This document shows, piece by piece, positions 42,162 to 42,838 of a stretch of DNA of 64,000 nt. The notes beneath the pieces were generated by a model. It ran no database searches and was not told where the DNA came from. It worked only from the letters and a program-made list of their open reading frames with translations. Within the stretch, counting starts at the first letter, position 1; every line of letters starts with the position of its first letter. Made by a program: the position numbers and the translations under genes. This DNA is from Streptococcus pneumoniae (GTDB lineage Bacteria; Bacillota; Bacilli; Lactobacillales; Streptococcaceae), in contig NZ_CFGI01000001.1 in the NCBI RefSeq assembly GCF_001347015.1, positions 62,001 to 126,000 on the forward strand. Direction: 5' to 3'.

Positions 42162-42332
42162 CTAAAATAAGGTCATGTAAAAAGCATGAATACTATTAAC
42201 CAAATTGGTAAAGGCATTTAACCAGAGCAGGACAGAAAGTCCATAACGCTTTTTACGAAAAGCCTGTGCTCCTGCAAGCAAGCAGACCAAACACAGCATG
42301 GCTGTGAAAAAACCAAATATACTACGTTCCAT
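42162..42332 (-). CDS. Small hydrophobic protein, 56 aa
   Basis: This short gene starts at ATG 42332, overlapping the dihydrofolate reductase stop by 1 nt (TAATG), and ends at TAG 42162-42164. AAAGGAAG lies upstream. The product (MERSIFGFFTAMLCLVC...) has one clear membrane helix (about 5-22), a basic FRKKRYG, and a second hydrophobic stretch (about 32-55). The same small gene sits between the two genes in pneumococci, as I recall. Function unknown. Confidence 0.8.
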   Translation of the reverse strand: MERSIFGFFTAMLCLVCLLAGAQAFRKKRYGLSVLLWLNAFTNLVNSIHAFYMTLF

Positions 42333-42838
42333 TAGACTTCCTTTCTCTTGCGGTATTGGATGGTAAAATCATAAGGATTTTTCTCATCTTTGCTATAGAA
42401 TTTGCTTGAAACTGTCTCAAAAAGAGACAAGTCAAATTCTTCAGGGAAATAGGTATCTCCTTCCACCCGAGCATGAATGTGAGTCACAATCACTTCGTCA
42501 AGGTAGGGTTCAAAAGCTTGAAAAATTTGCTTTCCACCTAAAATATAAAGATTCTTATCTTGAGCCTGATACCAGTCCAAGACAGACTGAACATCATAAA
42601 AAGTAGCAACTCCATCTATCTTTTCTTCTAGGTTACGTGTCAAAATCAAGGTCTCCCGTTTTGGAAGCAAGCGACGCCCCATCCCATCAAAGGTCACGCG
42701 CCCCATCAAGATAGCATGATTCAGAGTTGTTTCCTTGAAATGTTGCAGTTCTGCTGGCAAATGCCAAGGCAGACGATTGTCCTTACCAATCACACCCTCT
42801 TCATCCTGGGCCCAAATAGCTACGATTTTCTTAGTCAT
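42332..42838 (-). CDS. folA: Dihydrofolate reductase with trimethoprim-resistance-type residues
   Basis: This 168-aa chromosomal enzyme reduces dihydrofolate with NADPH. Active-site parts are VIGKDNRLPWHLP (about 16-28), GRVTFDGMG and YILGGKQIF. By my count residue 100 is Leu (NLYIL, codon TTA), where susceptible pneumococci have Ile; I100L is the main trimethoprim-resistance change. Asp20, Leu70, Tyr81, Ala92 and Phe135 also differ from the susceptible sequence as I remember it (E20, P70, Q81, D92, L135). The cluster suggests a mosaic allele. Confidence 0.94.
   Translation of the reverse strand: MTKKIVAIWAQDEEGVIGKDNRLPWHLPAELQHFKETTLNHAILMGRVTFDGMGRRLLPKRETLILTRNLEEKIDGVATFYDVQSVLDWYQAQDKNLYILGGKQIFQAFEPYLDEVIVTHIHARVEGDTYFPEEFDLSLFETVSSKFYSKDEKNPYDFTIQYRKRKEV

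What the first reader, a model, noticed from the sequence alone, without database searches (positions are those of the whole stretch)
42332..42838. Dihydrofolate reductase carries Leu100 and other trimethoprim-resistance-type changes
Counting from Met1, NLYIL places Leu (TTA) at residue 100. In pneumococci the I100L change alone raises trimethoprim resistance. Asp20, Leu70, Tyr81, Ala92 and Phe135 also sit at positions known to vary in resistant mosaic alleles. Together they suggest a recombined folA from a Mitis-group donor, or a natural S. mitis allele. The reference residues are from memory.
Basis: partly seen in the sequence, partly recalled or inferred. Interest (0 to 1): 0.72.

Follow-up and report, generated by a model that had tools for sequence, protein, structure and literature searches.

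The report
Acquired trimethoprim-resistance-type folA in streptococcus
A mouth-and-throat streptococcus carries a patchwork gene for the enzyme blocked by trimethoprim, with the well-known resistance change, and a matching sulfonamide-resistance change elsewhere in its genome; the kind is known, but it shows how often commensal relatives of the pneumococcus carry this pair.

Summary
folA lies on the minus strand at 42332-42838 (168 aa) and residue 100 is Leu (TTA). Asp20, Ala92 and Phe135 are background: Phe135 is in 99 of 100 Mitis-group genomes, Asp20 in 39 and Ala92 in 26 of the 43 closest. Leu100 is the informative residue. It is in 29 of 100 genomes, with four Leu codons; the other 71 have Ile. 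It tracks insertions in the unlinked sulfonamide target folP: 22 of 29 Leu100 genomes have one, 9 of 71 others (Fisher 1.8e-9); no other folA residue does so as strongly. The window's genome has a folP insertion too, a 6-bp duplication. folA is mosaic: 340 bp are identical to one relative and 1,180 bp to another, against 5-6% divergence around them. Four species-level genomes share folA codons 77-168 exactly except the first base of codon 100. Best reading: a co-trimoxazole-resistance genotype acquired by homologous recombination among Mitis-group streptococci. Published MICs of Leu100 commensals agree (PMC6332807); no MIC of this strain is known. The pairing of the two marks is known in pneumococci. 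Known kind, modest interest.

The parts
42332..42838 (-). folA (dihydrofolate reductase), 168 aa
   Evidence: ORF; DHFR_1; one match in the own genome
42539..42541 (-). codon 100, TTA = Leu
   Evidence: 42541 is the only difference from G055 and G140 within 42274-42610
42271..42610 (-). mosaic block, 340 bp, identical to relative G272; holds codons 77-168 of folA. G055 differs there only at 42541; G140 only at 42541 and 42273
   Evidence: mismatch lists; run test (global p 0.0005 for G272, 0.0035 for G055 and G140; codons 77-168: 0, 1 and 1 differences, next genome 14)
   Evidence: 223 polymorphic sites in a row identical, global p 0.0005
42683..42839 (-). 5' part of folA (codons 1 to about 52), closest to G094; just upstream of folA closest to G237 and G268
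   Evidence: pairwise p 0.0155 for G094, 0.0005 for G237 and G268; none significant after correction for all relatives
42162..42332 (-). small hydrophobic ORF (56 aa) overlapping the folA stop by one base, between folA and clpX
   Evidence: translation; sits in the place of D39V_01413 in the locus given in PMC11389379
40893..42125 (-). clpX
   Evidence: NF003745, 651 bits
42968..43486 (-). dpr/dps-like gene upstream of folA
   Evidence: Dps model, 75.8 bits, below its cut-off 114

Best explanation
This is the chromosomal folA of a Mitis-group streptococcus carrying an acquired trimethoprim-resistance-type allele. Part of the gene, including codon 100, was exchanged by homologous recombination with other Mitis-group species (shown: mosaic blocks; direction not shown). 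Leu at residue 100, in the drug-binding pocket (recalled), is expected to weaken trimethoprim binding while the enzyme keeps working (inferred from published pneumococcal work). The same genome has a 6-bp duplication in folP at the sulfonamide site (shown), so the strain probably carries the two-gene co-trimoxazole-resistance genotype selected by use of the drug pair (inferred).
For: Leu100 in frame in an intact DHFR. folP of the same genome reads STRPGSSYSYVEIE against STRPGSSYVEIE, an exact AGCTAT duplication. Over 100 Mitis-group genomes, one per species, Leu100 and folP insertion go together: 22/29 against 9/71, Fisher 1.8e-9; in the mitis/pneumoniae clade 16/19 against 5/24 (4.8e-5); in the oralis/infantis set 6/10 against 4/47 (9.1e-4). 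Shuffles within these two sets reached the observed overlap in 0 of 100000; residue 100 is the strongest of 111 residue-states tested. folA and folP are far apart (G272: 1.54 Mb and 0.26 Mb of 2.06 Mb), so linkage does not explain it. Four Leu codons. Mosaic blocks. Pneumococcus: Ile100Leu alone gives a trimethoprim MIC of 16 ug/ml (PMC11389379); full co-trimoxazole resistance had folP insertion plus I100L in 159 of 160 (PMC4721534, passages). Mitis-group commensals: 9 of 9 isolates with FolA I100L have co-trimoxazole MIC 2 or 4, 4 of 4 without have 0.25 or less (PMC6332807 Table 2, passage).
Against: No MIC exists for this strain. 7 of 29 Leu100 genomes lack a folP insertion and 9 of 71 others have one. 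Tree evidence is thin: the folA tree without codon 100 needs 21 changes of the label, but well-supported branches force only 6, and the label is somewhat clustered (shuffled mean 25.4; 6 of 500 shuffles as low as 21); the independent-pairs test on supported branches had 6 pairs, 4.4 concordant and 0.1 opposite on average, median p 0.125. The direction of the exchanges is unknown; the window's lineage could be donor or recipient. Blocks other than those shared with G272, G055, G140 and G159 are not significant after correction.
Confidence: 0.86

Rival explanations
1. Leu100 is a natural, drug-unrelated allele of this species or of part of the Mitis group.
For: Leu100 is common in the clade (19 of 43 genomes); three Leu100 clade genomes have no folP insertion (G055, G094, G233); the label is somewhat clustered on the folA tree.
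Against: Scattered, four codons, Ile in 71 of 100 and in the sanguinis and parasanguinis loci; strong association with insertions in an unlinked drug target, for residue 100 above all others; published MICs of Leu100 commensals are raised (PMC6332807, passage).
Confidence: 0.07
2. Leu100 arose in this lineage by point mutation (ATA to TTA) with no import of the codon; the mosaic is unrelated background recombination.
For: One first-base change suffices; Ile ATA exists (G166 in the clade); PMC11389379 found 5 of 245 resistant pneumococci without a recombination block at folA.
Against: The block with codon 100 is identical to G272, TTA included, over 340 bp while its surroundings differ by about 5%.
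Confidence: 0.12
3. An ordinary pneumococcus imported folA from a Mitis-group donor.
For: Gene order clpX-folA-dpr as in pneumococci; block identical to a record titled S. pneumoniae SMRU824.
Against: Flanking DNA is 93.8% identical to the pneumococcus-like G158 and below 96% to all 20 relatives fetched (a regional figure, not a whole-genome one); the genome is held as its own species-level representative (genome search description).
Confidence: 0.04

Closest known systems
Pneumococcal folA I100L mosaic trimethoprim-resistance alleles (PMC11389379: Results parts 1-2 of 3, recombination section, Discussion part 1 of 2 read; Adrian and Klugman 1997 and Maskell 2001 seen only as citations)
   Same: Same gene, same locus order, Leu100, mosaic block over folA, paired with a change in folP (sulA)
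   Different: Host is another Mitis-group species; D20 and F135 are that clade's ordinary residues; MIC unmeasured
Interspecies recombination at dhfR and folP in pneumococcal lineages PMEN3 and PMEN9 (PMC8321556, passages)
   Same: Same two marks used to predict resistance; in 20,043 pneumococci 7,770 were predicted trimethoprim-resistant and 7,666 resistant to both drugs, so the pairing is known there
   Different: Pneumococci only in those counts; here species-by-species over the Mitis group
folP (DHPS) 1-2 codon insertions near residues 58-66 (PMC3886935, sections on both drugs read)
   Same: Two-codon insertion inside STRPGSSYVEIE
   Different: This exact string (SY duplication) is not in that paper's Table 1; here it is also in G091, G268, G226, G216 and G074
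Co-trimoxazole-resistant Mitis-group commensals with FolA I100L and FolP insertions (PMC6332807, Table 2 passage)
   Same: Same two marks in S. mitis and S. oralis isolates, with MIC data
   Different: 13 isolates there; here one genome per species, 100 in all, without MICs
S. sputorum SP218/SP219, a multidrug-resistant Mitis-group species (PMC8698525, passages)
   Same: Trimethoprim- and sulfamethoxazole-resistant Mitis-group relative with a mutated sulA in imported DNA
   Different: Not shown to be this species; the term folA does not occur in that text
Mobile trimethoprim-resistant dfr genes (DfrA, DfrD, DfrG, DfrF and others)
   Same: DHFR family
   Different: The 25 NCBIfam families shown (of 31) all score below their cut-offs; this is the resident single-copy folA

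Membership tests
Chromosomal folA I100L trimethoprim-resistance alleles of Mitis-group streptococci | Resident folA (DHFR) in the clpX - small ORF - folA - dpr locus, intact | tested here: met
   locus order as in PMC11389379
Chromosomal folA I100L trimethoprim-resistance alleles of Mitis-group streptococci | Leu at residue 100 | tested here: met
Chromosomal folA I100L trimethoprim-resistance alleles of Mitis-group streptococci | Mosaic (recombinant) block over folA, usual but not required | tested here: met
Chromosomal folA I100L trimethoprim-resistance alleles of Mitis-group streptococci | Raised trimethoprim MIC or drug-insensitive enzyme | not testable with these tools
   no strain phenotype at hand; inferred from papers only
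folP insertion (sulfonamide-resistance) alleles | One or two codons inserted between Arg58 and Ile66 of DHPS | tested here: met
Mobile dfr genes | Score above a curated Dfr model cut-off, or an extra DHFR copy | tested here: not met
   (best trimethoprim-resistant model 112.5 bits, cut-off 300; 25 of 31 families shown); one match in the genome
Drug-unrelated natural allele | Fixed or clade-wide, no link to other antifolate marks | tested here: not met
   tree support thin

The most novel reading that the evidence does not exclude
One folA block (codons 77-168) has moved through at least four Mitis-group species and now differs among them only at the first base of codon 100 (TTA, TTA, CTA, CTA). 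The resistance codon would then have been gained more than once on the same travelling block, as part of a pattern in which Leu100 and folP insertions were acquired together many times over across commensal species.
Probability: 0.3. Interest if true: 0.45.

Novelty: new member of a known kind. Interest (0 to 1): 0.3.

Why it matters
Residues listed as pneumococcal resistance changes (D20, A92, F135) are ordinary in the Mitis group, so counting differences from R6 overstates resistance in commensals; residue 100 is the one that tracks antifolate selection. 29 of the 100 Mitis-group genomes carry Leu100, 22 of them with a folP insertion, and four of them share a folA block across species lines: a commensal pool in exchange.

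Tried and rejected
Reading Asp20, Ala92 and Phe135 as resistance marks was rejected by the group-wide tallies. A mobile dfr gene was rejected. Leu100 as natural allele was rejected as the main reading. Other residues as trackers of folP insertions: in the 43-genome clade residue 60 Lys (p 0.021) and 81 Tyr (p 0.034) do not survive 36 tests; in the full set residues 84, 77 and 79 (p 1.3e-4 to 4.2e-4) look like clade markers, since within the clade 84 Gln has p 0.11 and 77 and 79 are not among the twelve strongest. Residues tied to Leu100 itself in the clade: of nine tried, 70 Leu p 0.0016, 120 His p 0.0036, 81 Tyr p 0.013, uncorrected. The independent-pairs test was underpowered. G158 is called pneumococcus-like because its folA has E20, P70, E94, I100 and L135, the reference states implied by the changes listed in PMC11389379 and PMC3886935; its name is not given. 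PDB 3ix9 is by far the closest solved relative; no fold work was done as nothing depended on it. The first call for a folP model used a wrong accession and told nothing.

Left out of counts: 100 of the 284 genus genomes were used for the association (the window's own and all listed with folA at least 77% identical); the other 184 were not surveyed, among them G218, whose two weak partial matches were not examined. The split into a mitis/pneumoniae clade (43) and an oralis/infantis set (57) is by folA identity of 89%; the group names are recalled or from titles. G098 has extra folA copies and G126 a second folP-like match; one copy each was counted. G129 folA is partial. 17 of 20 relatives entered the run test, 3 had too little coverage.

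Full report
The observation. The ORF at 42332-42838 is read from the minus strand and encodes a complete 168-residue dihydrofolate reductase. The genome search gave one match. The order is clpX, a 56-aa ORF, folA and a dpr/dps-like gene, the folA locus that PMC11389379 defines for pneumococci.

Which residues mean anything. I extracted folA and folP from 100 Mitis-group genomes, one per species: the window's own and all others listed with folA at least 77% identical, out of 284 genus genomes (tabulated). Phe135 is in 99 of 100. Asp20 is in 39 and Ala92 in 26 of the 43 genomes of the mitis/pneumoniae clade. Among the 19 clade genomes with Ile100 and no folP insertion, 16 have D20, 10 A92 and 18 F135. 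These are background. PMC11389379 likewise found Asp92Ala in 245 of 417 susceptible pneumococci. The same paper counts Leu135Phe as contributing; here Phe135 is the group's ordinary residue, so in pneumococci it may partly mark imported DNA (inference). Leu70 is different: 7 of 43 in the clade, all with Leu100 (p 0.0016, uncorrected, one of nine residues tried), none among the 19; outside the clade G216 has Leu70 with Ile100.

Leu100 as an acquired change. Leu100 is in 29 of 100 genomes (19 of 43 in the clade, 10 of 57 in the oralis/infantis set), with codons CTC 12, CTT 13, TTA 2, CTA 2; the other 71 all have Ile. The sanguinis and parasanguinis loci have Ile; of six S. suis loci there three have Leu. 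On a quick folA tree built without codon 100 the label needs 21 changes, of which well-supported branches force 6. The label is somewhat clustered: shuffles average 25.4, and 6 of 500 are as low.

The unlinked partner. The genome's folP carries an exact 6-bp duplication (AGCTAT) that turns STRPGSSYVEIE into STRPGSSYSYVEIE, inside the stretch where PMC3886935 places the insertions of all its sulfonamide-resistant isolates. Over the 100 genomes, 22 of 29 with Leu100 have a folP insertion and 9 of 71 without Leu100 do (Fisher 1.8e-9); without the window's own genome 21 of 28 and 9 of 71 (4.5e-9). Each set shows it alone: 16 of 19 against 5 of 24, and 6 of 10 against 4 of 47. Shuffling within the two sets never reached the observed overlap in 100000 tries. 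Of 111 residue-states in folA, residue 100 stands apart (1.8e-9; next 1.3e-4); inside the clade the next is 0.02. The two genes lie more than 700 kb apart on the complete G272 chromosome whichever way round. Common drug selection is the simplest account. A pair test on supported tree branches agreed in direction (6 pairs; on average 4.4 concordant, 0.1 opposite, 1.5 without difference) but is too small to count (median p 0.125).

The mosaic. The stretch 42271-42610 (340 bp) is identical to G272; the two blocks overlap. A run test on 553 polymorphic sites gives global p 0.0005 for both, the floor of 2000 permutations, and 0.0035 for G055 and G140 (17 of 20 relatives). The 5' part of folA is nearest G094, with only pairwise significance. 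So the gene is a patchwork, and the resistance codon sits in a block shared by four species-level genomes. Which lineage gave and which received is open, and so is whether the codon changed once on the block with a later silent change, or more than once.

Mechanism and phenotype. Shown in print, not here: Ile100Leu alone gives pneumococci a trimethoprim MIC of 16 ug/ml and is the change most strongly associated with resistance (PMC11389379). Full co-trimoxazole resistance had both marks in 159 of 160 pneumococci (PMC4721534, passages). In non-pneumococcal Mitis-group isolates all 9 with FolA I100L in Table 2 of PMC6332807 had co-trimoxazole MIC 2 (two) or 4 (seven), and all 4 without had 0.25 or less (the paper's text says eight isolates with folA and/or folP mutations, its table shows nine). 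I infer the same for this strain. That residue 100 lies in the drug pocket is recalled and was not computed.

Known or new. The allele is a new member of a known kind. The pairing of the two marks is known in pneumococci: by these same two marks, 7,770 of 20,043 were predicted trimethoprim-resistant and 7,666 resistant to both drugs (PMC8321556, passages). I found no paper that tests residue 100 against folP insertions species by species across the Mitis group, in five searches of an open-access library of which I saw listings and a few papers; that is not proof of absence.

Noticed in passing
window 49048-50439: A DUF4261 protein (49048-49827) and a protein matching only the C-terminal half of the IS30 transposase model (49957-50439) lie in a stretch (49.0-50.5 kb) without a match in any of the 20 relatives' stretches; in five of them matching resumes beyond it, so it is probably an insertion.
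   Followed up: partly
window 44138-45628: A choline-binding glycosyl hydrolase family 25 protein (LytC-like, name recalled) is about 76-85% identical to 8 of the 14 relatives with aligned DNA there but 87-98% to the other six: another patchy locus near folA.
   Followed up: no
window 34500-36000: Two divergent forms: 96.8-100% identity to G140, G159, G158, G237 and G268 but only 74-85% to most other relatives, over two genes that look like ybbR and disA (names recalled).
   Followed up: no
G206, G127, G236 (folP loci L199, L201, L283): A four-codon folP insertion (TRPATRPGSSYVGIE) in three genomes of the oralis/infantis set, longer than the one or two codons in the papers read; all three have Leu100.
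   Followed up: no
L055, L058, L060 (S. suis folA): Leu at the position of residue 100 in 3 of 6 S. suis loci, Ile in the other three: the same change in a more distant species.
   Followed up: no
G098 (L136, L137, L151): Genome with several folA copies on contigs of 13 kb and 2.1 Mb, one broken by stops; contamination 5% reported, possibly an assembly effect.
   Followed up: no
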